Positions 4,134-56,400 of a DNA stretch of 64,000 nucleotides are shown here, piece by piece (position 1 is the stretch's first letter; each line of letters opens with the position of its first letter). The translations under genes were made by a program, and so were the position numbers. The notes beneath the pieces were generated by a model. It was not told the origin of the DNA. It searched no databases and was given only the letters and a program-made list of their open reading frames with translations. The DNA is taken from positions 1-64,000 of IMG/VR virus record IMGVR_UViG_3300027852_000040, one strand, 5' to 3'. This DNA is from a virus.

Positions 4134-4712
4134 ATGATAGATGAAGAGAAGACGTTTAAATTATTCGGATATTATTCTTCTGACTTGACACCGAAAAGTG
4201 GTAAAAAGATAGTTTGTATTTGCAATGATTGTGGTAAAGAGAGGGTATTGGGAAGGTTTGAATATGTAGATTTGTGTAGATCTTGTAGTTTGAGTGGGGA
4301 GAGAAATCCAATGTTTGGTGAGCATCATTCTATAGAAACTAAAGATAAAATAAGTAAAACACTTACTGGTAAATATTGTGGAAAAAATAATCCAATGTTT
4401 GGAAAACATCTTTCTATTGAAACTAAGCAAAAAATAAGTAAATCAAAGTGTGGTGAAAATCATCCAAATTATATTGATGGAAAGTGGAGAGAACGTAGTG
4501 ACGCAAAACGTAGAGGATTTCCAAAACCAGAATTATTCTTTGGTGATAAGTATAACGATATTGAAAAAATTGTGGGTCACCACTTTAATGAAAAAATTAT
4601 AATATACATACCAGAACGTTTACATCAAACGAATACACACAATCTTAGAACTGGTAAAGGAATGTTGAAGATAAATATGTTAGCGTTAATATATTTATTG
4701 AGTGAACAGTAA
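4134..4712 (+). CDS. NUMOD3/HNH-type homing endonuclease
   Basis: 192 residues. Order: conserved start MIDEEKTFKLFGYYSSDL, zinc finger (CNDCG then CRSC), two NUMOD3 DNA-binding repeats (NPMFGEHHSIETK and NPMFGKHLSIETK), an NPNYIDG linker, and the C-terminal HHFNEKIIIYIP...H nuclease-like block ending in an INMLAL helix. It sits alone between the divergent promoter at 4030 and the Cas4-like gene, as expected for a free-standing mobile endonuclease gene. Confidence 0.85.
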   Translation: MIDEEKTFKLFGYYSSDLTPKSGKKIVCICNDCGKERVLGRFEYVDLCRSCSLSGERNPMFGEHHSIETKDKISKTLTGKYCGKNNPMFGKHLSIETKQKISKSKCGENHPNYIDGKWRERSDAKRRGFPKPELFFGDKYNDIEKIVGHHFNEKIIIYIPERLHQTNTHNLRTGKGMLKINMLALIYLLSEQ

Positions 4713-6042: not shown

Positions 6043-6071
6043 ATGTTTAAAGTATATGGGAGATGATTAAT

Positions 6072-6650
6072 ATGCATAACGTTAAAGCTATCTTTAATTT
6101 AGATTTAGAAGATTATATGGCATATAAAAGTTTAGAAGAAGGACATGTATATTTAGTAAATGAATTAGACAATGACTTAGTATATGGTAGTATTCTAAGT
6201 ATGAATGAAATGGTAAGATTAGGTGTAACTAATATTACAATGCATATTAATTCAATTGGTGGATTTATATTTTCATCTTTTACATTATATGATTACATTA
6301 ATCTAATTAAATGTAAGAATGGTATACATGTAACATCAGTGGTAGAGGGGGAGGCTTGCTCTGCAGCTTCTATGATAGTTATGCAGGCAGCGGATGAAAG
6401 ATTGGCGTGTGAGAATTCTAGGATAATGATACACGAACCATATGAATTCATTGAAGGGGGACTAACGGTTACCAAGTATAAGGATAGAAGTAAAGAAATG
6501 GATACTGTTACAAAAATGGTAATGGATATATTAAGTGATAGATGTAATAAAACTTCTAAAGAAATAATGAAAGTAATAAAGAATACTGATGTCTTCATGC
6601 GACCAAGTGAGGCGTTGGAGTTTGGGATAATAGATGGAATTTTAAAGTGA
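6072..6650 (+). CDS. ClpP-like serine protease
   Basis: ClpP/crotonase fold: HINSIGG at residues 58-64, nucleophile S97 in GEACSAAS, H121 in RIMIHEP, and D173 in TDVFMRPSEALEFG, so the Ser-His-Asp triad looks complete. I prefer the ATG at 6072 because GGAGATGAT is spaced correctly; an in-frame ATG at 6063 is also present. ClpP-like proteins are often phage prohead proteases, but here a separate XkdF-like protease is adjacent to the capsid gene. This one leads directly (GTGA overlap) into the first ADP-ribosyltransferase gene, so it may process those proteins. Confidence 0.8.
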   Translation: MHNVKAIFNLDLEDYMAYKSLEEGHVYLVNELDNDLVYGSILSMNEMVRLGVTNITMHINSIGGFIFSSFTLYDYINLIKCKNGIHVTSVVEGEACSAASMIVMQAADERLACENSRIMIHEPYEFIEGGLTVTKYKDRSKEMDTVTKMVMDILSDRCNKTSKEIMKVIKNTDVFMRPSEALEFGIIDGILK

Positions 6651-7765
6651 TTAAAGTGAATTTGAAAAAGGGAAATGAAAGTAAATCATCTCCACAATTA
6701 ATACCCAAAAAAGTACTTGTTCGTGGTAAAGATGGGTCATATTATGCTATACGTTATGTTAGGTCTGGAAGTGAGGAAGATGGTGGGAAGCAGAATTTAT
6801 CATCTATACCAAATGTGAAGATAAAGGATTTATTAATATTAATTGGTGAAAGTAAATTAAATCAAAAACAATTACATGAGTTAGTTAGTCATGAAGATGA
6901 ATATGTTAGAGAACGAGTAGCAAGAAAAATTAATCAAAGTGGATTACATCAGATGATTAATGATGATGATGATGATGTTAGAAAAAGAGTAGCGGAAAGA
7001 ATTAATCAAGCTGGACTTCAGTTAATAATGAATGATGAACATAGATATATTAGAGAAATTGCAATAAAACGAAATGATTTAATAAATAATATTAAATTTA
7101 CAATTGATTCATATGATAAGAATAAAGAAATTGAATTATCAAAATATATGAAAAATGAATTAAAAGATATTATTAAAAAAGATACACGTAGTGTGAGTAT
7201 GATGAAATGTACAGATGAGTTTTATGGAAATGTTGATAATGGTAAATTTATTGATTTTCATATAGAATCTAAAAATGAATGGATATGGAGTTCATTTTCT
7301 GATTTAGCTTTACTCTTAAAGGATTCAATAAAAAGACAATTTGGTTGCGAAATTAGACATTACTATGATATTAATGATTATGATGAAAAAGTTAATGAAT
7401 TGTATAAAGTATATAATAGAAAAGATGTAGATGAATATGTTAAAATGCAAAAGGATCTCACTAGAAAATATTTAGATGAAATGTTTCCTGATACTGATAT
7501 TATTACATTATATCGAGGTACACATAAAGATGAAATTGAAGATCTTAATGATGAGGATAAAAAAGTAATAGTTAAATCAAATCCTTTATCTTCTTGGACA
7601 TTAGAAAAATATATTGCTAAAGGATTTGGTGAAACTGGAGTTGTTTTAACTACAAAGGTACATAAGGATGATATATGGTCTACATTTATGAGCCATGCAT
7701 ATGATGGTGATGCGAGGGAAATTATAGTAATAGGCAATAAAGATAGAGAAGTGGATGTGATATGA
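6647..7765 (+). CDS. Repeat-ADP-ribosyltransferase fusion 1 (3 repeats)
   Basis: 372 residues. N-terminus: conserved PKKVLVRGKDGSYYAIRYVRSG-type segment (about residues 22-43). Then three 24-residue helical repeats of the LRV/HEAT-like type (INQxGLHxMINDxxxxVRxxVAxR). The C-terminal half is an R-S-E-class ADP-ribosyltransferase: arginine of LYRGT near 289, SNPLSSWTL near 310-318, and glutamate of REIIVIG near 356. The residue two before that glutamate is alanine, unlike the ExE of its paralogues. It probably starts at GTG 6647, overlapping the ClpP-like stop codon. Confidence 0.8.
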   Translation: MIKVNLKKGNESKSSPQLIPKKVLVRGKDGSYYAIRYVRSGSEEDGGKQNLSSIPNVKIKDLLILIGESKLNQKQLHELVSHEDEYVRERVARKINQSGLHQMINDDDDDVRKRVAERINQAGLQLIMNDEHRYIREIAIKRNDLINNIKFTIDSYDKNKEIELSKYMKNELKDIIKKDTRSVSMMKCTDEFYGNVDNGKFIDFHIESKNEWIWSSFSDLALLLKDSIKRQFGCEIRHYYDINDYDEKVNELYKVYNRKDVDEYVKMQKDLTRKYLDEMFPDTDIITLYRGTHKDEIEDLNDEDKKVIVKSNPLSSWTLEKYIAKGFGETGVVLTTKVHKDDIWSTFMSHAYDGDAREIIVIGNKDREVDVI

Positions 7766-9456
7766 AAATGAATATAGAAAAGCAAAATGAAAATAAGTTA
7801 TCAACAACATCATCTCAACTAATACCCAAAAAAGTACTAGTTCGTGGTGATAATGGATCATATTATGCTATTAGATATGTTAGGTCTGGAGAGGAAGAGA
7901 AAGAGAATGTGAATTTAAGGAACATTGATATAGCTAAATTATTATCGTTACTCGATAATAATAAATTAAATCAAAATCAATTACACGAATTAATTGATCA
8001 TGAAATTGAATTTATTAGAGAACGAATAGTTAAACATATTAATCAGATTGGTTTACATAAGATGATAAATGATGAAAGTAGAGTAATTAGAGAAAAAGTA
8101 GCAGAAAGAATTGATCAAGTTGGTTTACATAAAATGATGAATGATAAAAGTGTACAGGTTAGACGAGATGTAGCTATGAGAATTAATCAAGTTGATTTAC
8201 ATAAGTTGATAAATGATGAGGATGAAGTTAGAGAGATAGTGGTAAAAAGAATTGATCAATCTGGACTACATGAAATGATGAATGATGAAAGTATATATAT
8301 TAGAGGATGTATAACTGAAAGAATTAATCAAGTTGGTTTACATGAAATGATGTATGATAATAATGAATTTATTAGAAGAATAGTAACACATAGAATTGAT
8401 CAGATTGGATTACATGAAATGATGAATGATAAAAGTGAGGAAGTTAGAAAGAGTGTAACAAAGAGAATTGATCAAATTGGTTTATATAAAATGATAAATG
8501 ATAAAGATTATCATGTTAGAGAAGGAGTAACATGTAAAATTAATCAAGCTGGACTTCATAAAATGATAAATGATGAAAAAGAATATGTTAGAAGTGGTGT
8601 AGTAAGGAGAATTAATCAAGATGGTTTACATAAGATGATAAATGATGAAAATGAAAATATTAGATCAGCTATAGTAAAAAGAATTGATCAAGTTGGATTA
8701 AATGAGATGAAGAATGATAAGAGTGAGCAGGTAAGGGTAGAAATATTAAGTCGTGTAAGAGATATAAATAATATTAAATCTACAATTGATTCATATGATG
8801 ATAATAAAGAAGTTGTATTATCAAATTATATGAAAGATGAATTAAAGTATGTTATGGAAAAAGATAAATCAAGTACAAATATGATAAAATTCACTAATGA
8901 GTTTTATAAAAATATTAATAATGGTAAATTTGATGAATTTCATGTAAGTTCAAAAGATGATTGGGAACGTAGTTCTTCTTCTGATTTAGCATTATTATTA
9001 AAAGATTCAATTATGAGACAATTTGGTGGAGAAATTAGACATCATGATGCTGTTAGTGATTATGATAAAAAGGCTAATGAATTATATGACGATAATAATA
9101 AAAGTAATGTTGATGAATACGTTAAAATTCAAAAAAATCTTACTAGAAAATATTTAGATCAAATGTTTCCTGATACTGATATTGTTACACTATATAGAGG
9201 TACCACTGAAAATGAAATTCAAACTTTGGGTGATGATAATAAGATAATAGTTAAATCAAATCCTTTATCATCATGGACATTAAAAGAGAGTGTGGCTAAT
9301 GATTTTAGTAAACAAGAAAATAAAAATGGTATAGTTTTAACTACAAAAGTACACAAAGACGATATATGGTCAACATTTATGAGTCACGCATATGAAGGCA
9401 ATGAAAGAGAAATTTTATTAATAGGCAGTAAAGATAGAGAAGTGGATGTAATATGA
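7762..9456 (+). CDS. Repeat-ADP-ribosyltransferase fusion 2 (11 repeats)
   Basis: 564 residues, the longest of five paralogues. After the shared VLVRGDNGSYYAIRYVRSG segment come eleven 24-residue repeats (IDQVGLHKMMNDKSxxVRxxVAMR type; the fourth has lost one residue). The transferase domain has R near 478 in LYRGTT, SSWTL near 501-505, and the ExE pair in EREILLIG near 547-549, the pattern of arginine-directed mono-ADP-ribosyltransferases. Its start overlaps the previous gene as ATGA, and its own stop overlaps the next start the same way. Confidence 0.82.
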   Translation: MKMNIEKQNENKLSTTSSQLIPKKVLVRGDNGSYYAIRYVRSGEEEKENVNLRNIDIAKLLSLLDNNKLNQNQLHELIDHEIEFIRERIVKHINQIGLHKMINDESRVIREKVAERIDQVGLHKMMNDKSVQVRRDVAMRINQVDLHKLINDEDEVREIVVKRIDQSGLHEMMNDESIYIRGCITERINQVGLHEMMYDNNEFIRRIVTHRIDQIGLHEMMNDKSEEVRKSVTKRIDQIGLYKMINDKDYHVREGVTCKINQAGLHKMINDEKEYVRSGVVRRINQDGLHKMINDENENIRSAIVKRIDQVGLNEMKNDKSEQVRVEILSRVRDINNIKSTIDSYDDNKEVVLSNYMKDELKYVMEKDKSSTNMIKFTNEFYKNINNGKFDEFHVSSKDDWERSSSSDLALLLKDSIMRQFGGEIRHHDAVSDYDKKANELYDDNNKSNVDEYVKIQKNLTRKYLDQMFPDTDIVTLYRGTTENEIQTLGDDNKIIVKSNPLSSWTLKESVANDFSKQENKNGIVLTTKVHKDDIWSTFMSHAYEGNEREILLIGSKDREVDVI

Positions 9457-10859
9457 AAGTAAATATAGAAAAGCAAGGAGAAAGTAAGCCTCCCACATCT
9501 ACACAATTAGTACCTAAAAAAGTACTTGTTCGTGGTAATAATGGATCATATTATGCTATTAGATATGTTAGGTCTGGAAGTGAGGAAGGTAAGGGGAAAT
9601 CAAATTTAGGTGATATGGATTTAATGGAGTTACTAGAATTCCTTGAAGAAAATACATTAGATCAAACCCAATTACATGGATTAATTAATCATGAGGATCA
9701 ATATATTAAAAAATATGTAGCTGAACGAATCGATCAAAAAGGATTACATGAATTGATTAATAGTGATGATAATAATGTTAAACATATAATAGTGAAAAGA
9801 ATCGATCAGGCTGGTTTACATGAGATGATGAATGAGAAAGATTGGCTTCTTAGAAGAAAGGTAGCGGAGAGAATTGATCGAGATGGACTTCGTGAAATGA
9901 TGAATGATGAAAGTGAATTTGTTAGATCACAAGTTGTTGAAAGAATGAATCAAAAAGGACTTCATGACATGATGGGGGATAAAAGTAAAATAGTTAGGGA
10001 ACATGTAGCGGAGAGAATTGATCAGGCTGGATTACATGAGATGATGAATGATGAGGAAGAAAGTGTTAGATTAGAGATAGCTAAAAGAATTGATCTAATT
10101 GGATTGAATAAGATGAAAGATGATGAAGATGTATGTGTAAACGTTAAAGTATCACATCGTATAGAAGTTATAGATCGTACTCAATCTATGATTGACGCAT
10201 ATAAAAAGGATAAGAAAATTGTGCCAACGACGTGGATGACTGGTGAATTAACGCGTGTTATAGATGAAGAAGATGATAGTGTTAATATAATAGAGTGTAC
10301 CAATGAATTCTATATGGACATTGCTGGTGGCAAATTTAGTGATTTTCATTTGAAATCAAAAGATGCGTGGGAGGATAGTTCATCAGCGGAGTTAGCTTTA
10401 CTTTTAAAAGATTCAATAAAAAGGCAATTTGGTGGAGAAATAAGGCATCACGATGATGTTGATGATTATGATAAAAAAGCTAATGAATTATATAAAATAC
10501 ATAATATGAAAAATGTTGATGAATATGTTAAAATTCAAAAGGATCTTACTCGTAAGTATTTAGATCAAATGTTTCCTGATACTGATATTATTACAATATA
10601 TAGAGGTACTACTATAATGGAAATTGAAAATTTAGATGACAATAGGAGTGTAATAGCAAAATCGAATCCTCTATCATCATGGACATTAAAAGAGAGTGTT
10701 GCTGATAGTTTTCGTAGATTTGAAGATGGTGGAGTTATTTTAACTACAGAAGTTCATAAAGATGAAATATGGTCAACATTCATGTGTCATGCATATCAAG
10801 GTTATGAGAGGGAAATCTTGTTAATAGGAAACAAAGATAGAAAGGTGAATGTAATATGA
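9453..10859 (+). CDS. Repeat-ADP-ribosyltransferase fusion 3 (7 repeats)
   Basis: 468 residues: N-terminal VLVRGNNGSYYAIRYVRSG segment, seven 24-residue repeats, then the transferase with R384 (IYRGTT), S408-S409 (PLSSW), E452 and E454 (EREILLIG). Codon use is slightly less AT-rich than in copy 2. The 3' end (GNKDRKVNVI) is the tail shared by all copies and overlaps the following methyltransferase start as ATGA. Enzyme class follows from family knowledge; the target is unknown. Phage ADP-ribosyltransferases such as T4 Alt modify host transcription machinery. Confidence 0.82.
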   Translation: MKVNIEKQGESKPPTSTQLVPKKVLVRGNNGSYYAIRYVRSGSEEGKGKSNLGDMDLMELLEFLEENTLDQTQLHGLINHEDQYIKKYVAERIDQKGLHELINSDDNNVKHIIVKRIDQAGLHEMMNEKDWLLRRKVAERIDRDGLREMMNDESEFVRSQVVERMNQKGLHDMMGDKSKIVREHVAERIDQAGLHEMMNDEEESVRLEIAKRIDLIGLNKMKDDEDVCVNVKVSHRIEVIDRTQSMIDAYKKDKKIVPTTWMTGELTRVIDEEDDSVNIIECTNEFYMDIAGGKFSDFHLKSKDAWEDSSSAELALLLKDSIKRQFGGEIRHHDDVDDYDKKANELYKIHNMKNVDEYVKIQKDLTRKYLDQMFPDTDIITIYRGTTIMEIENLDDNRSVIAKSNPLSSWTLKESVADSFRRFEDGGVILTTEVHKDEIWSTFMCHAYQGYEREILLIGNKDRKVNVI

Positions 10860-12001: not shown

Positions 12002-12036
12002 GTGAAGAAGAGTAGTATAAGAGTAGAATGATATAC

Positions 12037-12690
12037 ATGATTGATGAAGAAAAGACGTTTGAGTTATTTGGATATTATTCGTATGATTTAAAGTCGAAAA
12101 GTAACAAGAAAGTAGTTTGTATCTGTAATAATTGTGGGAAAGAGAGGATACTTAGATTGGTGGATTATCGTACTTTATGTAGGTCTTGCTCAAATAAAGG
12201 AAAACATCTTTCAGATAAAATAAAGTATAAATTAAGTAAATTATATAGTGGTAAAAATAATCCAATGTTTGGAAAGCATCATTCCACTAAAACTAAGCAA
12301 AAAATTAGTAATTCACTTAAGGGAAAATGTTGTGGAGAAAATCATCCAATGTTTGGGAAGATAGGAAAAGATAATCCAAATTTCGGAAAACACCGATCCA
12401 TTAAAACTATAGAAAAATTAAGTAAAGTAAATATGGGAAAAAATAATCCAAATTATATAGACGGTAAAGGTAAAGAAAGAGTTAAAGCTAGACGAAGAAA
12501 CTTTCTAGCTCCTAAATTCTTCTTAGGAGATAGATATTGTAAAGGATTAGTAGCTCACCATCTTACTGAAACAGTTATAATATACATTCCACTATATATA
12601 CATAGAAAGAATTGGCACAATCTTAGAACAGGAAAAGGTATGAGAGAAATAAATGATTTATCTTTGAAGTTTTTACTAGAAGGATTTTAA
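12037..12690 (+). CDS. NUMOD3/HNH-type homing endonuclease
   Basis: Starts MIDEEKTFELFGYYSYDL, zinc finger CNNCG/CRSC, about three NUMOD3 units (NPMFGKHHSTKTK, HPMFGKIGKDNPNFGKHRS), NPNYIDG, then VAHHLTETVIIYIP...WHNLRTGKGM. An upstream in-frame ATG at 12028 exists; 12037 aligns with the paralogues. The insertion separates the methyltransferase pair from the nucleotidyltransferase gene. Confidence 0.85.
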   Translation: MIDEEKTFELFGYYSYDLKSKSNKKVVCICNNCGKERILRLVDYRTLCRSCSNKGKHLSDKIKYKLSKLYSGKNNPMFGKHHSTKTKQKISNSLKGKCCGENHPMFGKIGKDNPNFGKHRSIKTIEKLSKVNMGKNNPNYIDGKGKERVKARRRNFLAPKFFLGDRYCKGLVAHHLTETVIIYIPLYIHRKNWHNLRTGKGMREINDLSLKFLLEGF

Positions 12691-14724: not shown

Positions 14725-15462
14725 ATGATTGATGAAGAGAATACATTTGAATTATTCGGATATTATTCATATGATTTGAAGTCGAAAAGTAATAAGAAGA
14801 TAGTTTGTATATGCAATGGATGTGGAAAAGAGAGGGTATTAGATAAAAGTGGTTATAGTGATTTATGTAAGTCTTGCTCAAAGAAAGGTGAAAATCATCA
14901 CATGTATGGGAAGCATCACTCTAAAGAAGCACGTGAAAAGATGAGTAAGGCTCGTGATGGAAAGCATCATTCCATTGAAACTAAAGAGAAGTTAAGTAAG
15001 GCAGTAAGTGGAGCGAAAAATCCAATGTATGGAAGGAAAGGAAAAGATAATCCAAATTTTGGATCACATCGTTCATTTGAAACACTAGAAAAAATGAGTA
15101 AAGCACTTAAGGGAAAATATTGTGGAGAAAATAGTTCATTTTTTGGTAAACATCATACTAACGAATTTAAGGAAAAATTGAGTAAGGATAGAAAGGGAAA
15201 AAATAATCCAAATTACATAGATGGAAAATGTGAAGTAAGAGATAGCGCAAGACGAAGAAACTTCCCAAAGCCTAAATTCTACTTAGGTGATAACTATTGT
15301 AAAGAAGAAAAGAATGTATTCGTCGCTCATCATCTTACTAAAGAAGTTATAATATACATTCCAGAATATATACATAGAAAGAATCGTCATAGACTTAAAA
15401 GTGTAAAAAGTGTGAAAGAAATAAACAATTTATCTTTGAAATTTTTACTAGAAGGATTTTAA
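14725..15462 (+). CDS. NUMOD3/HNH-type homing endonuclease, longest intact copy
   Basis: 245 residues with about four NUMOD3-type units (HHMYGKHHSKEA, KNPMYGRKGKDNPNFGSHRS, NSSFFGKHHTNEF). It has the usual zinc finger (CNGCG, CKSC), NPNYIDG, and the HHLTKEVIIYIP...NRHRL nuclease-like end. Variable NUMOD3 number among paralogues implies different DNA target lengths. It begins 4 bases after the glycosyltransferase stop. Confidence 0.85.
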   Translation: MIDEENTFELFGYYSYDLKSKSNKKIVCICNGCGKERVLDKSGYSDLCKSCSKKGENHHMYGKHHSKEAREKMSKARDGKHHSIETKEKLSKAVSGAKNPMYGRKGKDNPNFGSHRSFETLEKMSKALKGKYCGENSSFFGKHHTNEFKEKLSKDRKGKNNPNYIDGKCEVRDSARRRNFPKPKFYLGDNYCKEEKNVFVAHHLTKEVIIYIPEYIHRKNRHRLKSVKSVKEINNLSLKFLLEGF

Positions 15463-16398: not shown

Positions 16399-17121
16399 AT
16401 GAATGAAAGTTTAACTAAATGGTGTTATATACTACCAGCATATAATATGAAAGAGTCCACAGAAATATCCGATTTTATATTAGCATTATACCATCTTACT
16501 ATCACATACACCGATTATAGAGAAACACTTAAATCCTATAATGGACTAAAAATGTTAGATAACTCATACTGGGAACTACAGAAAAATCCTAAATTAGAAG
16601 ATTACATAGATATGGCTAAATATTTAGACGTAGACGTAATATTTACTGAAGAAACCATGGATGGCGATATTGATAAGATAATCAGTAGTGCAACTGAAAT
16701 GAGAGAGATAATGCCAGATGTTGATATAATGGGAATTGTTAAAGTTAATAAAGGTATAAGTTGTGCAATGGATATGGCGTCAGGATTAATCGATTGTGAT
16801 GATATAAAGTATATAGGAGTTTCCTATCATCCTGGGAAGTGGTTGATAGATGAATTTGGTGACAAGAAGTCAATAGTATTAGAAATAGGTAGGAGAATTA
16901 AACGTATAATTGATAATAATAGTAAAGATAAGATATTATATTCAAATGGATTGGATCCAATTATAATAAATGATATAGGGCAATTTTATAAATTTAATGA
17001 AACTTTTCAATATTGTGATACATCTTACTTTACTAGGAAAATTGTTGGTGATGTTGGTAATTTAAATTTTGATCGTAAAATGTCTAATTTAGAATTGGAT
17101 ACCATGAAATATTTGTTATAA
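16399..17121 (+). CDS. DpdA-like 7-deazaguanine DNA transglycosylase candidate
   Basis: 240 residues. The motif KMLDNSYWEL (D54) corresponds to the LDNGA(F/Y/A)E motif of phage TGT-like proteins, where the aspartate is catalytic. It is followed by an alternating strand/helix barrel pattern (DVDVIFTEE, VDIMGIVKV, IKYIGVSYHP). Phage DpdA enzymes swap guanine in DNA for a 7-deazaguanine. The virus encodes the full precursor pathway at 53554-58801, which makes this the missing insertion enzyme. The exact subgroup is inference; the glycine and alanine of the usual motif are replaced by S and Y. It abuts thyA. Confidence 0.6.
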   Translation: MNESLTKWCYILPAYNMKESTEISDFILALYHLTITYTDYRETLKSYNGLKMLDNSYWELQKNPKLEDYIDMAKYLDVDVIFTEETMDGDIDKIISSATEMREIMPDVDIMGIVKVNKGISCAMDMASGLIDCDDIKYIGVSYHPGKWLIDEFGDKKSIVLEIGRRIKRIIDNNSKDKILYSNGLDPIIINDIGQFYKFNETFQYCDTSYFTRKIVGDVGNLNFDRKMSNLELDTMKYLL

Positions 17122-20060: not shown

Positions 20061-20763
20061 ATGATAGATGAAGATAAGACAGTTGAACGGTTTGGATATT
20101 ATTCGTCGAATTTAAGTTTACATAGTAATAAGAAGATAGTTTGCATTTGCAATGATTGTGGAAAAGAGAGAGTGCTTTCTAAAAATGGTTATAGAGATCT
20201 TTGTCATTCTTGCTCAAAGAAAGGTGAAAATCATCATATGTTTGGTAAAACTCATATAATAGAAACTAAGAAAAAGATTAGTGAAACTCGTAAGGGAAAA
20301 TGTTGTGGGGAAAACAACCCAATGTTTGGTAAAACTCATTCATTAGATACAATTAAAGAAATGATTAAAGTTAAGAAAGGTGAAAATAATCCAATGTTTG
20401 GTAAACATCATTCAGTAGAAGTTAGAAGTAGAATAAGTGAATTAAATAAAGGTAAAACTCACTCAATAGAAACTAAATTAAAATTAAGTAAATCTAGAAT
20501 TGGAAAAAAATAATCCAAATTATATTGATGGAAGAGGAAAGGAAAGAGATGTAGCAAAAAGTGATGGTCGGCCAGTACCAGAACTCTTTTTAGGCAACAA
20601 ATATAATGGTAAAATAAAAATGGACGGACACCACTTTAATGAAAAAATTATAATATATATTCCAACGAGTTTACATCAAAAATATCGACACAATCTTAGA
20701 ACTGGTAAAGGTATGAAGGAGATAAATACTTTAGCATTTAAATTTCTAATAGGAAAACTTTAA
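20061..20763 (+). pseudogene. Frameshifted NUMOD3/HNH homing endonuclease
   Basis: The first frame (20061-20513) encodes the zinc finger (CNDCG, CHSC) and about four NUMOD3 units, then stops after SRIGKK. The rest (NNPNYIDG ... HHFNEKIIIYIP ... RHNLRTGKGM) continues in another frame from about 20500 to 20763. The break is at GGAAAAAAATAATCC (A7), where intact paralogues have GGAAAAAATAATCC (A6). One extra A explains it. It is a decaying copy, a sequencing error, or, less likely, programmed slippage. Confidence 0.85.
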
Positions 20764-35429: not shown

Positions 35430-36776
35430 ATGGCACTAGAATTGCTAATTAAAATAAGTGATGAGATTGGTGAAACTGTAAAAAATTTAGATGAAGTTTC
35501 TGAGAAATTATCAGATTTAGAAGATAAGCAAGATGAACAAACAGAAAGTTCAGAAAAAAGTAATAAAAAGCAATCATTAGGATGGTTAGGTTTAGGATTA
35601 ATTGCTGGTGCTACAATATTAGGAATTGCTAAACATTCAGCAATTGCGTCATTGTATATGAATGATTTTAGTGACGCATTTGGGTACTTAATTGATGAAA
35701 TCATAACTCCGGCTGAGCCATTACTACAAAAAGCATCTGATCTTTTGTGGGAATTAGGGGATAGGTTTGAAAAATTACCAGAACCAATTAAAAAGGTATC
35801 ATCTGGATTGTTTTTAATTGGTGGTGGGGTTGGTGCTCTTGCTGCTGGATTTGCTGTATTAAAGGGTTTAGGTATAACTACATTATTTAGTGGAATGTCA
35901 TCTGCAATTATGGGAATTCCTATGTCACTTACTACTGCTGTTACAGCTGTAGGTGCTGGAGCAGTGGCAATTGGTCTTGCTGTAGGATTGGCTGGGATGA
36001 AGGTAATAGATATGGTTGGAGGTTTTGATAAAATTGGTAAGTGGGCGGATGATTTTGCCACAAAAAATCCTGTTGCTAAAGCGTTGATAGATGCAATATT
36101 AGATCCCATTGCTACTACCGGTGTAATACTCTTAGATATTGTTAGGGGAGATTGGGATAAAATTCCTGAGCATATGGAGTATATGAATGAAAAACTGAAG
36201 GATAATTTAAATTTAATAAAAGATACAATTTATAATGGATTTACTAACATATTTAGAGACACGTTTGATAGTGTAACAAATTCATTAGCAGATTTAATCA
36301 TAAGCACAGATACATACTTTAACGAATTATCAGATAACTTTAAAGATTGGGCTACAAATATGGTAGACTCATTCTTAGAAGGTATAAGTGATTTACCTAT
36401 AAAATTATCAAACTTCTTGCGAGACGGAATACACGAACATTTAAGTTGGTTACCAGAGTGGGCAAGTGGGGCGATTGGATTAAGTCCAACTTTAATACAA
36501 ATTGGTGAAATGGTGCCACAATCTATACAGGAAGGTATAGAGTCTAGTCCATTGGATGTTAATCCAAAGGTTAATCAATCTAATATCAATAAATCAATGA
36601 TTGATAACATAAATGGTGGAGGAATGGGTAATGGAAACGGTAAGGAAGTTAATATTGAAATTAAACCAAATATTCATTTACATGATATGAAAGTATCTAA
36701 TGATTTCGATATAAGTGATTTAGCTAATAAACTATCCAGTTATTGGAAAAATGATATTAGGAGGAGTGTTGGGTAA
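35430..36776 (+). CDS. Tape measure protein
   Basis: 448 residues. N-terminal coiled coil (VKNLDEVSEKLSDLEDKQD), hydrophobic segments near 50-66 and 128-195 (LFLIGGGVGALAAGFAVL), then amphipathic helices and a Gly/Asn linker near the C-terminus. This is short for a tape measure; at about 1.5 angstroms per residue it predicts a tail near 65-70 nm. GGAGG precedes the ATG, and the stop overlaps the next start. Confidence 0.75.
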   Translation: MALELLIKISDEIGETVKNLDEVSEKLSDLEDKQDEQTESSEKSNKKQSLGWLGLGLIAGATILGIAKHSAIASLYMNDFSDAFGYLIDEIITPAEPLLQKASDLLWELGDRFEKLPEPIKKVSSGLFLIGGGVGALAAGFAVLKGLGITTLFSGMSSAIMGIPMSLTTAVTAVGAGAVAIGLAVGLAGMKVIDMVGGFDKIGKWADDFATKNPVAKALIDAILDPIATTGVILLDIVRGDWDKIPEHMEYMNEKLKDNLNLIKDTIYNGFTNIFRDTFDSVTNSLADLIISTDTYFNELSDNFKDWATNMVDSFLEGISDLPIKLSNFLRDGIHEHLSWLPEWASGAIGLSPTLIQIGEMVPQSIQEGIESSPLDVNPKVNQSNINKSMIDNINGGGMGNGNGKEVNIEIKPNIHLHDMKVSNDFDISDLANKLSSYWKNDIRRSVG

Positions 36777-39145
36777 TGGGATATATATACACACTTGTTA
36801 CATCTCCATCTGATGATTCACTATCAATCTTTGATGTATCAACTCCAAGTTCACCAACATTAGAAGGTGTAATAAGTGGTAGTGGTTCACCAAATTATTT
36901 AAATGGTGTAAGAAATATAGATGTGGTTGGTAATTATGCATATGTTTCAGCTTATAATGATAATTCATTAACTATTATTGATATATCAGATCTATCCACA
37001 CCAACCTTTGTTGGTAAAATTTCAGGTGCTGGAAGTCCAAATTATTTAAGTGGAATAATGGACGCTAAAGTAGTTGGAGATTATGCTTATACTGTATCTA
37101 ATTTTGATAATTCATTATCAATTTTTAATATATCAACTCCTAGTAATCCAACTTTAGTGGGTGAAATACATGGAGCTGGAAGTCCTAATTATTTAGATGG
37201 AGCGAGAAGTATAGAAATAGTTGGTAATTATGCATATGTTGCAGCTTTTAATGATAATTCTTTAACTATTATTAATATATCAAATCCAAGTTCACCAACC
37301 TTTGCTGGTAAAATTTCAGGTATTGGAAGTCCAAATTATCTAGGTGGACCACAAGATGTAAGTATTGTTGGTGATTACGCTTATGTTGTATCTTATAATG
37401 ATAATGCATTAACTGTTATTAATATATCATCTCCTTCTACTCCATTACAAGTAGGTGAAATTGATGGTGCTGGTTATCCGAATTATTTAGGTGAAGCAAG
37501 AAGTATAGATGTAATTGGTGATTATGCTTATATTACATCTAATCTTGATAATGCTTTAGTTATCTTTGATATATCATCTCCCACTACACCAACACTTAAA
37601 GGATCAATAGATGGTGCGGGAAGTCCGAATTATTTAAGTGGTGCACAGGGAGCAAAGGTTGTTGGTAATTATGCATATGTTGCATCTTATGTTGATGATG
37701 CATTAACTATCTTTAATATATCAAATCCTTTTAATATAACACATGTTGGTGAAATTTATGGATATGGTAGTCCTAATTATTTAAATGGTGCTCATGATTT
37801 ATTTACAATAGTATATGGTAAACCATCAACTTTTCAATATCTCACAATGAATCCAGATCCAGCTAAGGTTACACAAGAAGTAGATTTTGAAACTAAATTA
37901 TGGGATGATATTGATGATATTGCTATAGCTAATGTAGCTGTAAATTTATATGATGGATTAGTAGTAATAGGTACAGCAATTACTAATGCATCTGGTATTG
38001 CAACATTTAGTTCACTTTCATTTACTGAATTATCTAAAACATTAAAGGTATACTTTTCTGGTAATGATACATATTCTAGTAATACGTTAGAAGATACTTT
38101 TACATTTAATAAATGTGATACTATTTTATCAAATTTTATAATAAATCCAGATGAAACTTATGTGGGTGAAACTATAAATTTCTCATCTACACTTAATACA
38201 GAATTTGGTGAAGCGATTATTGGTAAAACTGTTAGATTATATAATATAACATTGGCATCAGATTTGGATACAGATTTAACAGATGTTAATGGTAGAATGA
38301 GTATTGATAAAACTTTTACGTATGAATTAATAAATGTATTTAAATGTATATTCGATAATACATCTATATACAATACATCTGAGAGTGATGAAAAGGTTTT
38401 AGTAATATCATCCGTTGCAGGTGTTAATATGACACTTGGTGTAAATACTAATACTGTAGAAGTATTAGAACCAGTAGAATGTACAGTAAGATTATGGAGA
38501 GGTGATACGGGTGACCCATTATCAAATAAATATATTGAGCTTAAAGATAATAGTACTGGAGTAGTATATGGTTCTGGATATACTGATTCCAGTGGTTATT
38601 TGTGTAGATATATACAATTTGAGATACCAGTTGTATATAATATAGTAGCATATTGGTCAGGAGATGGTTGGTCTGATCCTGTTACATCAACTAAAGTAGT
38701 AATAACGGTTAGAGATCCAATTGATCCTGGTGCTGAAGCAACACCGGAGGATTACATTTACATTTCTAAAACTGGAGGCGTTGATAAAATTTATCTAATA
38801 GTAGATAATGTAATAGAAAACATTGTTAGGGAACCTTATGTAATAGATCCAGCAAATAAGAATCAGTCTAAGATTAGAGATAAAGGTAAATGTAAATTAA
38901 GATTTGCTATATCAGGATGGGTATTAAGTGACACATATAAGGATGAATTGGAGACTGCTGTAAAAACATGGTACTCAGAAGAGAGTGGCAATGGGCCGAT
39001 TTTGTTAAATCTTCCTAGTCAAAATATTTATACTTGTGTGGCATCATATTTAGATATTAATGAATTACCTGATAGAGAAGGTAGATATGAGTATTTATTA
39101 GAATTATTGGAAGGAAGGATTACTGTGGGTGCGGAAGATGACTAA
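36776..39145 (+). CDS. Tail protein with seven-bladed LVIVD-type beta-propeller and Ig-like domains
   Basis: Residues 1 to about 345 contain seven units of about 55 residues sharing GSPNYLxGA, VVGNYAYV and DNALTIFNIS motifs, with the first strand probably closing onto the last. Two or three Ig-like domains (Big_3 style: TNASGIATFSSLSF, TDVNGRMSID) cover about 350-640. The last 140 residues (KTGGVDKIYLIVDNVIENIV ... LLNLPSQNIYTCVASYLDI) resemble a tail-tip domain and couple to the next two genes. It is a probable host-recognition protein. Confidence 0.8.
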   Translation: MGYIYTLVTSPSDDSLSIFDVSTPSSPTLEGVISGSGSPNYLNGVRNIDVVGNYAYVSAYNDNSLTIIDISDLSTPTFVGKISGAGSPNYLSGIMDAKVVGDYAYTVSNFDNSLSIFNISTPSNPTLVGEIHGAGSPNYLDGARSIEIVGNYAYVAAFNDNSLTIINISNPSSPTFAGKISGIGSPNYLGGPQDVSIVGDYAYVVSYNDNALTVINISSPSTPLQVGEIDGAGYPNYLGEARSIDVIGDYAYITSNLDNALVIFDISSPTTPTLKGSIDGAGSPNYLSGAQGAKVVGNYAYVASYVDDALTIFNISNPFNITHVGEIYGYGSPNYLNGAHDLFTIVYGKPSTFQYLTMNPDPAKVTQEVDFETKLWDDIDDIAIANVAVNLYDGLVVIGTAITNASGIATFSSLSFTELSKTLKVYFSGNDTYSSNTLEDTFTFNKCDTILSNFIINPDETYVGETINFSSTLNTEFGEAIIGKTVRLYNITLASDLDTDLTDVNGRMSIDKTFTYELINVFKCIFDNTSIYNTSESDEKVLVISSVAGVNMTLGVNTNTVEVLEPVECTVRLWRGDTGDPLSNKYIELKDNSTGVVYGSGYTDSSGYLCRYIQFEIPVVYNIVAYWSGDGWSDPVTSTKVVITVRDPIDPGAEATPEDYIYISKTGGVDKIYLIVDNVIENIVREPYVIDPANKNQSKIRDKGKCKLRFAISGWVLSDTYKDELETAVKTWYSEESGNGPILLNLPSQNIYTCVASYLDINELPDREGRYEYLLELLEGRITVGAEDD

Positions 39146-46889: not shown

Positions 46890-47750
46890 TCATCTCTTCC
46901 TTCTCAATATAATCTTAGACATTAAACACGTATTATTCTGTTGACAATATCTACTACCAAATTCATAATCAGATTGGAATTTCATATTAACCACATCATA
47001 TGGACACTGTACTATCTTACCACTGGGAAATATATTAGCAAAATTACATTTAATATTTGGTAGTGATTTAGAACTCTCAAATACTCCACGCTTTGATATA
47101 TGTATATCCATATTTCCATTATACTCAGTTAGAAAATTATGTACTAACTTTTTATATTCAAGTACTGGCATTGTTAACTTAGTATCATTAAAAAATTCTT
47201 TATCTGGGTTATCCAATTCTCTAATACTTGATATAAAGAATACTTTGGAATCTAATACATCTTCAGAATATTTAGCAGTTTCTAAGAGTTCGTTTAATGT
47301 AGTTTCCGCTGAAACCATATAATTAACATCAAATTTCATACCTTTTGTGATATTTGTTGCAACTTTTATCTTTCCATTCATACAATACACTGATAATCTC
47401 AGTTTAGCACCATAAAAGTCTTCACTACTATATCTATTTATAAAGTAACCATTTGTATAAATAGTAGTCTTTATACCTAACTCTTTATTCAATTTACAAA
47501 ACTTAGAAATATCTTTATGCAACAATGGTTCCCCACCAAGTATGTTTATTTGTTTTCCACCTTTATAATGAAAAGTATCTAGTATTTGTCTATACGTATC
47601 CATACTTATATCTTTCACATCACCATCTTTCATTACTTTTCTAGCGAAACAACCTTCACATTTTAAGTTGCATCGATTTGTTACAAATACCTGTAACGTT
47701 GGTCGACTTTCTAACGGCATTTCTTTATATTTATTCCAGGGGAATTTCAT
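46890..47750 (-). CDS. Radical-SAM protein with C-terminal cysteine cluster
   Basis: 286 residues. CNLKCEGC (C27, C31, C34) is the CX3CX2C cluster motif, and NILGGEPLLH the SAM-binding GGEP. The C-terminal part has KCNFANIFPSGKIVQCPYD plus two more cysteines, recalling a SPASM/twitch auxiliary cluster. It could modify a peptide or a base. No gene resembling NrdG is otherwise present, but the size and extra cysteines make this an unlikely NrdG. AAGGAG upstream. Confidence 0.75.
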   Translation of the reverse strand: MKFPWNKYKEMPLESRPTLQVFVTNRCNLKCEGCFARKVMKDGDVKDISMDTYRQILDTFHYKGGKQINILGGEPLLHKDISKFCKLNKELGIKTTIYTNGYFINRYSSEDFYGAKLRLSVYCMNGKIKVATNITKGMKFDVNYMVSAETTLNELLETAKYSEDVLDSKVFFISSIRELDNPDKEFFNDTKLTMPVLEYKKLVHNFLTEYNGNMDIHISKRGVFESSKSLPNIKCNFANIFPSGKIVQCPYDVVNMKFQSDYEFGSRYCQQNNTCLMSKIILRRKR

Positions 47751-49465: not shown

Positions 49466-49499
49466 TCGTACAAATGCTCCTTTTAACTTTTTATTATAA

Positions 49500-49545
49500 A
49501 TAATATATATACATTTAATCATACTTCAATCTTTTGTGTACTTTA
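49500..49545 (-). promoter_or_regulatory. Recurrent minus-strand promoter motif, copy 4
   Basis: Minus-strand reading ACACAAAAGATTGAAGTATG then ATTAAATGTATATATATTAT. It heads the Top6A-like and radical-SAM genes. Confidence 0.7.
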
Positions 49546-49877: not shown

Positions 49878-50366
49878 TTATACTAAAAATAATTCCCTAA
49901 AATCCCACATCCCATCTCTCATTCTAGGAATTTTAGTAATCTCCAATGTTTCACACATTCCATCTAATTCAATCCACTTAATAGACTTTCGACAATCAAC
50001 TTCAGTCCATTTAATTATTTGTTGCGCCGAAATAGAATACATCCTAAAATCTCTCGGCCTAGATCTATTGTTTATCAAAAATCGTCCAATTCCACCTAAT
50101 TGATCAACCATGAGAACATTATATATCTGATGTTCTGCTATGTAGTCAAAATTATAAGAAGTTTTATTTCTACTACTCTTTGCTTCTAATCCATATACTA
50201 TTCCTTCATGTAATGCAATAAAGTCAAAAGGTACAACAGGTCGATATTTATGTGATTGATAAGAGGTAGCATCTGGTATTTTGAGAAACCATAGATGATT
50301 AATTTTCTCATTATAATATCTAAGTGATTTTGATATTTCATATTCAAAATCTTTTCCACTATTCAT
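49878..50366 (-). CDS. RecU/Hjc-like Holliday-junction resolvase
   Basis: 162 residues. E8 in GKDFEYEI, D48 in PFDFIAL, and E61/K63 in YGLEAKSS give the E...D...ExK pattern of RecU-like PD-(D/E)XK resolvases; KIPDA upstream also fits. It would resolve branched DNA before packaging. Its ATG overlaps the stop of the ADP-ribosyltransferase gene upstream, and it ends 7 bases before the tRNA. Confidence 0.8.
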   Translation of the reverse strand: MNSGKDFEYEISKSLRYYNEKINHLWFLKIPDATSYQSHKYRPVVPFDFIALHEGIVYGLEAKSSRNKTSYNFDYIAEHQIYNVLMVDQLGGIGRFLINNRSRPRDFRMYSISAQQIIKWTEVDCRKSIKWIELDGMCETLEITKIPRMRDGMWDFRELFLV

Positions 50367-51490
50367 ATCACAGTCACTTCTCTATCCTTATTACCCATTA
50401 ACAAAATTTCTCGCTCAATACCATCATAAGCATGACTCATAAAGGTTGACCATATATCATCTTTATATACTTTCGTACTTAAAATTACACCGTCACCAAA
50501 ACTATTAGCAATATCTTTTTCCAATGTCCATGATGAAAGTGGATTTGATTTAACTATTATCTTACTATCATCATCATCTAAACTTTGAGTTTCATCAATA
50601 TTAGTACCTCTATATAGTGTAATAATATCAGTATCAGGAAACATTTGATCTAAACATTTACGAGTAAAATTCTTTTGTATTTTAACGTATTCATCAACAT
50701 CTTTTTTATTATATGTTTTATATAAATCATTAGCTTCTTTATCATAATCATCAATAGCATCATGATGTCTAATTTCTCCACCAAATTGTCTTTTTATAGA
50801 ATCTTTTAATAATAAAGCTAATTTAGAAGAAGAACTATGTATCCACGAATTCCTAGAAGTTATATGAAAATTACTAATTTCAGTATTATCAATGTTATTA
50901 TAAAATTCATCAATACATTTCATCATATATTCAGATGATTTACCTTCTTTCATAATATTATTTAATTCATCTTTCATATAATCTGATAATACAATTTCTT
51001 TATTATCTTCATATGAATTAATTGTAGATTCAATCTTATCTATGAGTTCTATACGTTTTGATGCTGTGTTTACAACTTTTTCACTTTTATCATTTAACAT
51101 TTTATGTAAACCTTTTAGATTAATTTCCTGTGCTACCTCATTTCTAATAAATTCACTTTTATCATTTATCATTTTAAAGAGTCCGGATTGATTAATTTTA
51201 TACACAACATGTTGTCTAATAGTAGTATTATTCACATTTACCATTTCATGTAAATCATGTTGACTTATTGAACCATCATCAATTAATTTCACCAATTTAG
51301 ATTCGTCAACTTTTTTCCAATTTCCTACTCCACTTTCATCCTTTACTTCTCCTTCTCCCTGCCTAACATATCTAACAGCATAAAATGATCCACCTTTACC
51401 ATGTATAAGTACCTTTTTAGGTACTAATTGTGATGATGCTGATGGTTTACCTTTATTTTGCTTTTCTATATCCATCTTTACTTTCACCAT
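50363..51490 (-). CDS. Repeat-ADP-ribosyltransferase fusion 4 (3 repeats)
   Basis: 375 residues. N-terminus SSQLVPKKVLIHGKGGSFYA, then three 24-residue repeats (INQSGLFKMINDKSEFIRNEVA type), then the transferase domain with LYRGTN, SNPLSSWTLEKDIANSF and IEREILLMG (ExE). Same architecture as the plus-strand cluster at 6647-10859, but in the opposite orientation 40 kb away. AGGTGATTATAT precedes the ATG. Confidence 0.82.
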   Translation of the reverse strand: MVKVKMDIEKQNKGKPSASSQLVPKKVLIHGKGGSFYAVRYVRQGEGEVKDESGVGNWKKVDESKLVKLIDDGSISQHDLHEMVNVNNTTIRQHVVYKINQSGLFKMINDKSEFIRNEVAQEINLKGLHKMLNDKSEKVVNTASKRIELIDKIESTINSYEDNKEIVLSDYMKDELNNIMKEGKSSEYMMKCIDEFYNNIDNTEISNFHITSRNSWIHSSSSKLALLLKDSIKRQFGGEIRHHDAIDDYDKEANDLYKTYNKKDVDEYVKIQKNFTRKCLDQMFPDTDIITLYRGTNIDETQSLDDDDSKIIVKSNPLSSWTLEKDIANSFGDGVILSTKVYKDDIWSTFMSHAYDGIEREILLMGNKDREVTVI

Positions 51491-51507: not shown

Positions 51508-51819
51508 TCAATCATACTCATCTAATAACACTATATGACCATCACCTTCAGTATAAATGAATGACTTTAAAGAATTTACTCCCCCACTCTGAGGAACAGA
51601 TTTGCCCAGTGTCACTCTGAGAAATCCTCCAACGTATGGCGCGTTGTTAATATTTGTTCCTCTATAAGTTATTTCAATAACTTTACCGGAATGTTTGATT
51701 AGATTACTTAAGTGTATATTATTGTATAAACTTGATTGATGTGAATTTGTACAATTTCTATTTAATAGTCCAATCTTTGTACCTATTTGTATATCATTTG
51801 TGTATTGTATTAGTTTCAT
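51508..51819 (-). CDS. Unknown protein between two ADP-ribosyltransferase genes
   Basis: 103 residues, beta-rich (KVIEITYRGTNINNAPYVGGF, FIYTEGDGHIVLLDEYD). Starts by ATGA overlap with the upstream transferase gene. It lacks repeats and the transferase triad. It may be an accessory or immunity partner of the transferases; that is inference from position only. Confidence 0.6.
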   Translation of the reverse strand: MKLIQYTNDIQIGTKIGLLNRNCTNSHQSSLYNNIHLSNLIKHSGKVIEITYRGTNINNAPYVGGFLRVTLGKSVPQSGGVNSLKSFIYTEGDGHIVLLDEYD

Positions 51820-53333
51820 ATTATACTCACTTCTCTATCCTTATTTCCTATTAACAAAATCTCCCGCTCATTGCCTACATTCTCACCAATAAGCGCATGA
51901 CTCATAAAAGTGGACCATATATCATCTTTATGTACACTTGTGGCTAAAACTACTCCAGTTTCCCCAAATTCACTTGCTACTTCCCTACTTATTGTCCATG
52001 ATGACAGTGGATTTGATTTAACGATTATTTTATTATTATCTTCATCATCATCATCATCAAAAGATTGAGTTTCAGCTTCAGTGGTGCCTCTATATATAGT
52101 AATATTATCAGTATCAGGAAACATTTGATCTAAATATACACGAGTAAGATCTTTCTGTACCTTAACGTATTCATCTACTTCATTTTTATCATATCCCTTA
52201 TATAATTCATTAATTTCTTCTTCTTGATTCATAACACCACCATGGTGTCGTATTTCTCCACCAAATTGTCTTTTTACTGAATCTTTTAAGAGTAGTGCTA
52301 AATTAGTAGATGAACCAATCTCCCATTCTTTTTTTGATCTTAAATGAAACGCACCAAATTTACTATTATTAATATTTTTATAAAATTCGTCAGTACATTT
52401 TACTATATTCACACTTTTTCTTTCATTTTTCATAACAGCTACTATTTCATCTTTTACATATTTAGATAATTCAATTTTTTTATTCTTATCATATGAATCA
52501 ATCATAGTTTTAATAGTATCTATCGACTCCAATCGTTCATTTACTTGATCTCTTACACCTTTACTTTTATCGTGCATCATTTCATTTAGATCAGATTGTA
52601 TAATTCTTTTAGTTACATTCTTTCTAACATCTTCACTTTCATCTTTCATCATTTTATGTAAACCACTTTGATCAATTCTATCTGTTACTTTTGATCTAAC
52701 CTCTTCACTTTTATCTTTCATTAATTTATGTAAACCGTCTTGATCAATTCTCATTGATACTATAGATCTAACATGCTCACTTTTATCGTTTAACATTTCA
52801 TGTAAACCAGTTTGATCCATTCTTATTGCTATCACTCCTCTAATATCTTCACTTTCATCATTCATCATTTTATATATTCCAGTACGATCAATTTTACTTG
52901 CCACCGTCCCTCTAACATCTTCATTTACATCATTCATCATTTTATGTAAACCATCTTGATCAATTTTTTCCGCTACCACCACTCTAACATCTTTATCTTT
53001 ATCGTTTATCATTTTATGTAAACCAGATTGATCAATTTGTTTTGCTACTGATATTTTAGTATGACCACTTACTCGATCAATCGCTTCATGTAATTGACTT
53101 TGATTTAATTTACCACCAAAAATTAATCTAGCTATCTCATATTTATCCATGTCCCGTAAACTAGGTTGCTTACTATCATCGTCTTTCTCTTCACTTCCAC
53201 TCATGGGATTAACATATCTAACAGCATAAAATGATCCACCTTTACCATGTACAAGTACTTTTTTAGGTACTAATTGGGATGATGATGATGGTTTATCTTT
53301 ATTTTGCTTTTCTATATCTATCTTTATACCCAT
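51816..53333 (-). CDS. Repeat-ADP-ribosyltransferase fusion 5 (8 repeats)
   Basis: 505 residues. Conserved KKVLVHGKGGSFYAVRYV N-terminus, eight 24-residue repeats (IDQDGLHKMMNDVNEDVRGTVA type), and a transferase domain with IYRGTT, SNPLSSWTISREVASEFG and NEREILLIG (ExE). A run of aspartates (about 436-442) lies between the arginine and serine motifs. It has a weak ribosome site (GAGTGATGGGAA) at the end of the 60-residue gene upstream. Confidence 0.82.
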   Translation of the reverse strand: MGIKIDIEKQNKDKPSSSSQLVPKKVLVHGKGGSFYAVRYVNPMSGSEEKDDDSKQPSLRDMDKYEIARLIFGGKLNQSQLHEAIDRVSGHTKISVAKQIDQSGLHKMINDKDKDVRVVVAEKIDQDGLHKMMNDVNEDVRGTVASKIDRTGIYKMMNDESEDIRGVIAIRMDQTGLHEMLNDKSEHVRSIVSMRIDQDGLHKLMKDKSEEVRSKVTDRIDQSGLHKMMKDESEDVRKNVTKRIIQSDLNEMMHDKSKGVRDQVNERLESIDTIKTMIDSYDKNKKIELSKYVKDEIVAVMKNERKSVNIVKCTDEFYKNINNSKFGAFHLRSKKEWEIGSSTNLALLLKDSVKRQFGGEIRHHGGVMNQEEEINELYKGYDKNEVDEYVKVQKDLTRVYLDQMFPDTDNITIYRGTTEAETQSFDDDDDEDNNKIIVKSNPLSSWTISREVASEFGETGVVLATSVHKDDIWSTFMSHALIGENVGNEREILLIGNKDREVSII

Positions 53334-53339
53334 TTCCCA

Positions 53340-53522
53340 TCACTCTTTACTTATACGTATTGGTTTAACCAATCCCTTAATTGTAATTTCGTTAGTACTT
53401 TTACTTTTCCTCACTTCCTTCTCTTTACTTTCAGTTTTACTCTCCTCTTTAGTATCCTCTTTACGACCAGCCTTTATCCAATCCGCACTTTTATCATTTA
53501 AATCTAATATTATTGTTTTCAT
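53340..53522 (-). CDS. Small charged protein at head of ADP-ribosyltransferase operon
   Basis: 60 residues: MKTIILDLNDKSADWIKAGR, a Lys/Glu-rich middle and a KGLVKPIRISKE end. GGGAGGTGAGTATAATATG is an excellent start. That start region also encodes, in another frame, the terminal residues IIGNKDREVSII typical of the transferase genes, so the gene arose next to a lost transferase copy. Function unknown. Confidence 0.65.
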   Translation of the reverse strand: MKTIILDLNDKSADWIKAGRKEDTKEESKTESKEKEVRKSKSTNEITIKGLVKPIRISKE

Positions 53523-53560
53523 ATTATACTCACCTCCCTATCCTTGTTTCCAATTATAAA
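53519..53560 (-). pseudogene. Remnant 3' end of an ADP-ribosyltransferase gene
   Basis: On the minus strand, FIIGNKDREVSII and a TGA stop can be read in frame, the same tail as the intact copies (GNKDREVxxI). It overlaps the last codons of the folE fusion and ends in the ATGA that starts the 60-residue gene. Only about 13 codons survive, indicating deletion of a sixth copy or recombination at the conserved tail. Confidence 0.65.
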
Positions 53561-56381: not shown

Positions 56382-56400
56382 TTTTATGTTACTCCTATAT

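What the first reader, a model, noticed from the sequence alone, without database searches (positions are those of the whole stretch)
6647..10859. Cluster of three LRV-like repeat ADP-ribosyltransferases with 3, 11 and 7 repeats
Each protein joins a conserved GSYYAIRYV N-terminal segment, an array of 24-residue helical repeats and an R-S-E transferase. Repeat number varies widely while the ends are conserved. This suggests exchangeable target recognition delivered with a constant enzyme. I know of no described phage system with this layout.
Basis: partly seen in the sequence, partly recalled or inferred. Interest (0 to 1): 0.85.

Follow-up and report, generated by a model that had tools for sequence, protein, structure and literature searches.

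The report
Archaeal virus's repeat-guided ADP-ribosylating protein family
A tailed virus that probably infects an archaeon carries five related proteins, each joining a short shared tag, a stack of small helical repeats with fast-changing surface positions, and an enzyme domain predicted to attach ADP-ribose to other molecules; they look like a diversified set of host-modifying effectors.

Summary
In all five the C-terminus matches Pfam DRAT above its cut-off, with R, S-S-[WY] and E-x-E motifs; protein A has A-R-E, so it lacks the first Glu. Repeats match Pfam LRV (protein C) and solved structure 1LRV. The virus is probably archaeal: capsid and portal relatives are haloarchaeal and methanogen viruses. 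Homologous ART domains occur in at least three other viral contigs, inside large proteins of the head module, beside MuF or portal genes. That supports a virion-delivered effector, but packaging was not shown. Repeat positions 4, 16, 19 and 20 change faster than synonymous sites, while the enzyme domain is conserved; this fits, but does not prove, diversified target recognition. The ART fold itself was not confirmed by structure (low-confidence model). Verdict: new variant of a known kind (virion-type viral ARTs), unusual for its LRV solenoid, five-paralog battery and archaeal-virus setting.

The parts
6647..7765 (+). Protein A (372 aa): tag + 3 LRV-type repeats + DRAT-like ART; E-x-E reads A-R-E
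7762..9456 (+). Protein B (564 aa): tag + 11 repeats + DRAT-like ART (E-R-E)
9453..10859 (+). Protein C (468 aa): tag + 7 repeats + DRAT-like ART (E-R-E); Pfam LRV above cut-off
50363..51490 (-).
51816..53333 (-).
6704..6760 (+). N-terminal tag of A (PKKVLVRGKDGSYYAIRYV), predicted beta-hairpin
   Evidence: two strands in the low-confidence part of the model of C
7825..7881 (+). N-terminal tag of B
9513..9569 (+). N-terminal tag of C
51365..51421 (-). N-terminal tag of D (PKKVLIHGKGGSFYAVRYV)
53211..53267 (-). N-terminal tag of E (PKKVLVHGKGGSFYAVRYV)
6857..7072 (+). Repeat array of A (3 x 24 aa)
7966..8754 (+). Repeat array of B (11 repeats; number 4 is 23 aa)
9657..10160 (+). Repeat array of C (7 x 24 aa)
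51053..51268 (-). Repeat array of D (3 x 24 aa)
52533..53108 (-). Repeat array of E (8 x 24 aa)
7073..7762 (+). ART domain of A: R290, S315-S316, A356-R357-E358
8755..9453 (+). ART domain of B
10161..10856 (+). ART domain of C
50366..51052 (-). ART domain of D
51819..52532 (-). ART domain of E
6063..6650 (+). ClpP/S14 protease, phage head-maturation-protease type, overlapping the start of A
53340..53522 (-). Small 'ADWIK' protein (60 aa) just upstream of E; relatives sit beside DRAT-like ART genes in two other viruses and at the N-terminus of a large protein in a third
51508..51819 (-). 103-aa protein of unknown function between D and E, in the same gene string

Best explanation
A five-member family of host-modifying effectors of an archaeal tailed virus. 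A short N-terminal hairpin tag (inferred: packaging into the head or other virion association) is followed by an LRV-type alpha-solenoid of 3-11 repeats that binds partner proteins (inferred), which places a C-terminal DRAT-family R-S-E ADP-ribosyltransferase on its substrate. The virus likely packages them and injects them with its DNA, as T4 Alt and the polyvalent ARTs of other viruses are thought to be, and they modify host proteins early in infection. Duplication plus gain and loss of repeats and fast change at exposed repeat positions give paralogs with different targets. Shown by sequence: architecture, paralogy, DRAT and LRV identity, R/S/E motifs (A lacks the first Glu), position-specific change, head-module location of homologs in other viruses. 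Inferred: catalysis, packaging, binding role, targets.
For: DRAT above cut-off in all five, and all six members of the wider ART alignment match DRAT. R, S-S-[WY] and E-R-E are kept in homologs at 38-43% identity. Protein A also matches the T4-Alt-type family phrog_832 (E 6e-5). Repeat region modelled at pLDDT about 90 and best matched by 1LRV. Repeat positions 4, 16, 19, 20 differ at first+second codon positions by 0.63-0.74 against 0.39 at fourfold sites, while ART domains show 0.18-0.25 against 0.26-0.51; neutral simulation P 0.004, 0.04, 0.0002, 0.006. Homologs lie in head-module proteins: G001/L026 two ARTs next to a MuF protein; G011/L048 five ARTs upstream of a MuF-type protein and a head-protease-like protein (these two named by eye from similarity to L026 and to known motifs); G012/L050 on the same strand as a portal related to this virus's portal; G003/L045 a weaker DRAT match in a protein ending in MuF, before the capsid gene. 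The tag resembles the N-terminus of a Leptospira-phage protein beside the portal gene. The small ADWIK protein is a shared neighbour. A is translationally coupled to a head-protease-type ClpP.
Against: The ART model has low confidence and matched no ART in the PDB searches. No virion proteomics. Cluster D/E lies among DNA-metabolism genes, not structural ones, and A-C are separated from the portal by about 6.5 kb of other genes. The tag is found in no other protein of this virus. The repeat-rate signal weakens if the neutral rate is set 1.5 times higher and the tested positions were chosen because they vary. Homologs do not share the LRV repeats (tested in L026 and three archaeal-virus proteins). 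Protein A lacks the first Glu of E-x-E.
Confidence: 0.55

Rival explanations
1. The same enzymes are made inside the infected cell (like T4 ModA/ModB) and are not packaged; the tag is a binding element for a host or viral complex, and the solenoid gives substrate choice.
For: Tag absent from the virus's own structural proteins; D/E cluster sits with RecU-, TopoVI- and nucleotide-metabolism genes; each protein has only one enzyme domain, unlike polyvalent proteins.
Against: Every homolog found elsewhere is in a head-module or polyvalent protein or next to one; A is coupled to a head-protease-type ClpP; tag-like N-terminus beside a portal gene in Leptospira phages.
Confidence: 0.27
2. The repeats are structural spacers or oligomerisation modules with no partner; number and surface drift because nothing selects on them.
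For: Repeat number varies freely between 3 and 11; relatives in other viruses have no LRV repeats.
Against: Core and most surface positions are conserved while four positions change faster than fourfold sites; end repeats are kept as distinct caps, both unlike a free spacer.
Confidence: 0.13
3. A DraT-like regulator of host nitrogenase reductase: the viral ARTs ADP-ribosylate NifH of a diazotrophic archaeon.
For: DRAT is the best-matching family.
Against: No DraG-type hydrolase in the record; five divergent copies and head-module homologs do not fit a single metabolic switch; DRAT is simply the nearest named family and matches only its C-terminal two thirds.
Confidence: 0.03

Closest known systems
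ARTs in polyvalent/head-module proteins of other viruses (Iyer et al. PMC5512222, PMC9503650); here contigs G001/L026, G011/L048, G012/L050
   Same: Homologous ART domain with the same W..SSS...LLK[DE]S..RQ helical lead-in and R, SS[WY], E-R-E motifs (L026 and L048); neighbouring ADWIK protein; recurrent short N-terminal tags shared between proteins
   Different: There the ART is one part of 1100-1900 aa multidomain proteins without LRV repeats (G011 also has small ART genes of 325 and 403 aa); here five small one-enzyme proteins with LRV solenoids
Druskaviridae gp115 of HVTV-1 (zeta toxin + ADPrib_exo_Tox)
   Same: Archaeal tailed virus with related capsid and portal; ART encoded between portal and capsid; already noted as ADP-ribosyltransferase (PMC8651126)
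   Different: ART of Pfam PF03496, not DRAT; fused to a zeta-toxin domain; no LRV repeats
DraT (dinitrogenase reductase ADP-ribosyltransferase, PF07357)
   Same: Profile match above cut-off in all five
   Different: Matches only positions about 76-250 of 256; no DraG partner; tag and solenoid added
T4 Alt / ModA / ModB
   Same: Viral R-S-E ARTs acting on host proteins; Alt is packaged and injected
   Different: Only a weak profile match, in protein A alone; no solenoid; bacterial host
LRV repeat protein 1LRV of Azotobacter vinelandii
   Same: Same repeat class and fold
   Different: No ART; this solenoid has hypervariable positions

Membership tests
DRAT (PF07357) | Profile score above Pfam's curated cut-off | tested here: met
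   A 33, B 28.9, C 30 bits, D 42.2, E 52.5 bits, cut-off 25
DRAT (PF07357) | DraG-type ADP-ribosylhydrolase partner (DraT-DraG system) | tested here: not met
   No PF03747 match in the 69-kb record at E 1; the record may be incomplete
R-S-E clade ART | Conserved R, S-T/S-S and [EQ]-x-E motifs | tested here: met
   R and S-S invariant in five paralogs and two L026 homologs; E-R-E in all but protein A (A-R-E)
R-S-E clade ART | ART fold | tested here: inconclusive
   Model pLDDT 66; Foldseek and VIA-align gave no ART match
LRV repeats (PF01816) | Profile above cut-off and alternating-helix right-handed solenoid | tested here: met
   Protein C 22.1 bits against 21.6; 1LRV best PDB match, TM 0.67 on target, 26% identity over 187 columns
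Virion-packaged ART (T4 Alt type) | Presence in the virion and injection | not testable with these tools
   Gene context only
Virion-packaged ART (T4 Alt type) | Sequence membership in the Alt family (phrog_832) | tested here: inconclusive
   Protein A E 6e-5; one of six ART-domain members, best E 0.0024
Polyvalent proteins | Several effector domains in one large polypeptide | tested here: not met
   One enzyme domain each in A-E; homologs elsewhere meet it
phrog_4162 (Leptospira phage head-module protein) | Whole-length profile match | tested here: not met
   Only the N-terminal part matches, E 0.0016-0.053; Leptospira protein scores E 4e-7 with the tag profile in a small set
Archaeal tailed virus (near Druskaviridae) | Capsid and portal closest to archaeal tailed viruses | tested here: met
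   All capsid hits (29-35% identity to HVTV-1 group and vir519, lower to vir335) and all portal hits are archaeal viruses; host itself not identified

The most novel reading that the evidence does not exclude
An archaeal virus injects a battery of five ADP-ribosyltransferases whose variable-length LRV solenoids are adapted under diversifying selection to steer the same enzyme to different host proteins: a modular, re-targetable protein-modification system.
Probability: 0.3. Interest if true: 0.82.

Novelty: new variant of a known kind. Interest (0 to 1): 0.62.

Why it matters
Viral ADP-ribosylation is known mainly from bacteriophages; for archaeal viruses only single annotations (HVTV-1, HCTV-5) were found in the papers read. 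A five-paralog set with solenoids of 3-11 repeats offers a natural test of whether a repeat array can re-aim a constant modifying enzyme, and would give a handle on which archaeal proteins a tailed virus modifies during takeover.

Tried and rejected
Homologs in named phages (tblastn of whole protein and of ART domain: nothing or chance) and in 84,980 bacterial/archaeal species by pattern scans (none; patterns reach limited distance). Scans of IMG/VR with protein B, the five-paralog ART profile and the capsid alone (none). L009 tag hit: a short match inside a protein of an apparently podovirus-like contig, taken as probable chance. Fold search with the ART model: no ART listed among Foldseek or VIA-align rows, not counted as evidence against because the model is poor. 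PDB sequence search: only a chance match to HisF. DraG and macro-domain partners: none. PADLOC: only weak repeat-type matches. LRV repeats in the homologs: none.

Full report
Observation. The three ORFs exist as described, with overlapping stop/start codons. Repeat counts of 3, 11 and 7 are exact; all units are 24 residues except repeat 4 of B, which has 23. A search of the virus's own 69,213-base record found two more paralogs on the - strand, D (50363-51490, 3 repeats) and E (51816-53333, 8 repeats), separated by a 103-aa ORF. The five align end to end at 57-63% identity to A. No sixth copy was found in the record.

The enzyme. All five C-termini match Pfam DRAT above the curated cut-off. 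Protein A also matches phrog_832, RNA polymerase ADP-ribosylase, at E 6e-5. Invariant motifs are YRGT, KSNPLSSWT (A in place of V before K in C) and a terminal R-E preceded by E in B-E but by A in protein A. In the ART superfamily (general knowledge) the second Glu of E-x-E is catalytic and the first helps choose the acceptor, so A may be altered. A wider scan found homologs in other viral contigs: two in G001/L026, five in G011/L048 and one, split into two matches, in G012/L050. The L026 pair, aligned here, keeps R, S-S and E-R-E; the L048 and L050 proteins show the corresponding motifs by eye, with T-S and N-E-N-E in L050. The ART-domain model had pLDDT 66 and matched no ART, so the fold rests on sequence profiles.

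The repeats. In the model of protein C the repeat region has pLDDT near 90 and consists of alternating short and longer helices. The best solved match is 1LRV (E 4.5e-6, TM 0.67 on the target, 26% identity); artificial alphaRep binders and other HEAT-like solenoids follow. First repeats (L[ND]QxQLHEL in A, B, C and similar in E) and last repeats share cap-like sequences across paralogs. Entropy is concentrated at positions 4, 16, 19, 20 and 23; 16, 19, 20 and 23 are spaced to fall on one side of the second helix. Over 21 internal repeats, first+second codon positions at these sites differ by 0.56-0.74, while fourfold sites differ by 0.39; ART domains show 0.18-0.25 against 0.26-0.51. A neutral simulation on a repeat tree gave P of 0.004, 0.04, 0.0002, 0.006 and 0.16 for positions 4, 16, 19, 20, 23; with a 1.5-fold higher rate only position 19 stays well below 0.05, while 4 and 20 fall near it. 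I read this as suggestive of diversifying selection on a binding surface. The positions were chosen because they vary, so the test is not unbiased.

The tag. The N-terminal element is modelled as a beta-hairpin, with low confidence. It is found in no other ORF of the record. A 154-aa Leptospira-phage protein encoded near the portal gene contains LVKKKVLVHGKAGDYMAFR at its N-terminus; phrog_4162, its family, matches the tags at E 0.0016-0.053. In the other viruses short elements recur across several head-module proteins: AKRRGLVPQSGDWxKPxRWV in G001 and G011, VPPEKRxYHPEGxHTGPRGGRF in G012, NWIPYxGPxGGEGWQ in G003. This suggests, but does not show, that such elements mark virion cargo.

Context. 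Capsid and portal hits are all archaeal viruses; the best terminase hit is Halogranum virus HGTV-1, with two bacterial phages also matched. A TopoVI-A/Spo11-type Toprim protein fits an archaeal setting, whereas NrdD and GAT-QueC resemble bacterial-phage genes most. I put an archaeal host at about 0.85; the species is unknown. Upstream of A is a ClpP of the head-maturation-protease type. Immediately upstream of E is a 60-aa ORF related (E about 1e-4) to small proteins beside the ART genes of L026 and L048, and those in turn to the N-terminus of a large L050 protein. G012 carries a portal related to that of this virus on the same strand as its ART protein, and G003 has a weaker DRAT match in a protein ending in a MuF domain. 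HVTV-1 gp115, between portal and capsid genes, contains a zeta toxin and a PF03496 ART; an ADP-ribosyltransferase of HVTV-1 and HCTV-5 is already noted in PMC8651126.

Literature. A survey of 21,191 viral proteomes places about 44% of phage ARTs in head-packaging contexts and finds ARTs in 3% of siphoviruses and podoviruses (PMC9503650). No held paper describing an LRV- or HEAT-guided viral DRAT was found; the library is partial.

Conclusion. These are most likely virion-type effector ARTs that have gained a solenoid and multiplied. The kind is known; the LRV solenoid, the paralog battery with position-specific change, and the archaeal-virus setting are new here.

Noticed in passing
4134-4712, 12028-12690, 14725-15462, 20061-20763, 62790-63377: Repeated NUMOD3/HNH homing-endonuclease-like genes; they flank ART cluster 1 and interrupt the structural module, and the 20061-20763 copy looks split in two frames.
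   Followed up: partly
53554-54387, 54939-56435, 57210-57842, 46890-47750: GTP cyclohydrolase (with an HNH-like N-terminal part), GAT-QueC and radical-SAM genes suggest 7-deazaguanine DNA modification, as in Druskaviridae; 16399-17121 might be a DpdA-like transferase (not tested).
   Followed up: partly
47801-49522: 573-aa protein with a Topoisomerase VI A/Spo11 Toprim domain, unusual in a virus.
   Followed up: no
36776-39145: Tail-region protein with six LVIVD repeats and an Ig-like domain, a possible receptor-binding protein.
   Followed up: no
L026, L048, L050, L045: Virus-specific short elements recur at starts and joints of several head-module proteins, as if they were shared cargo tags; not seen described in the papers read.
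   Followed up: partly
L050:3984-9290: Large protein combining a CCA-adding tRNA nucleotidyltransferase-like part with a DRAT-like ART.
   Followed up: no
G011:C1 (L048, L065): Another viral contig with five DRAT-like ARTs, including two small tandem genes of 403 and 325 aa with a shared N-terminus, parallel to this virus.
   Followed up: partly
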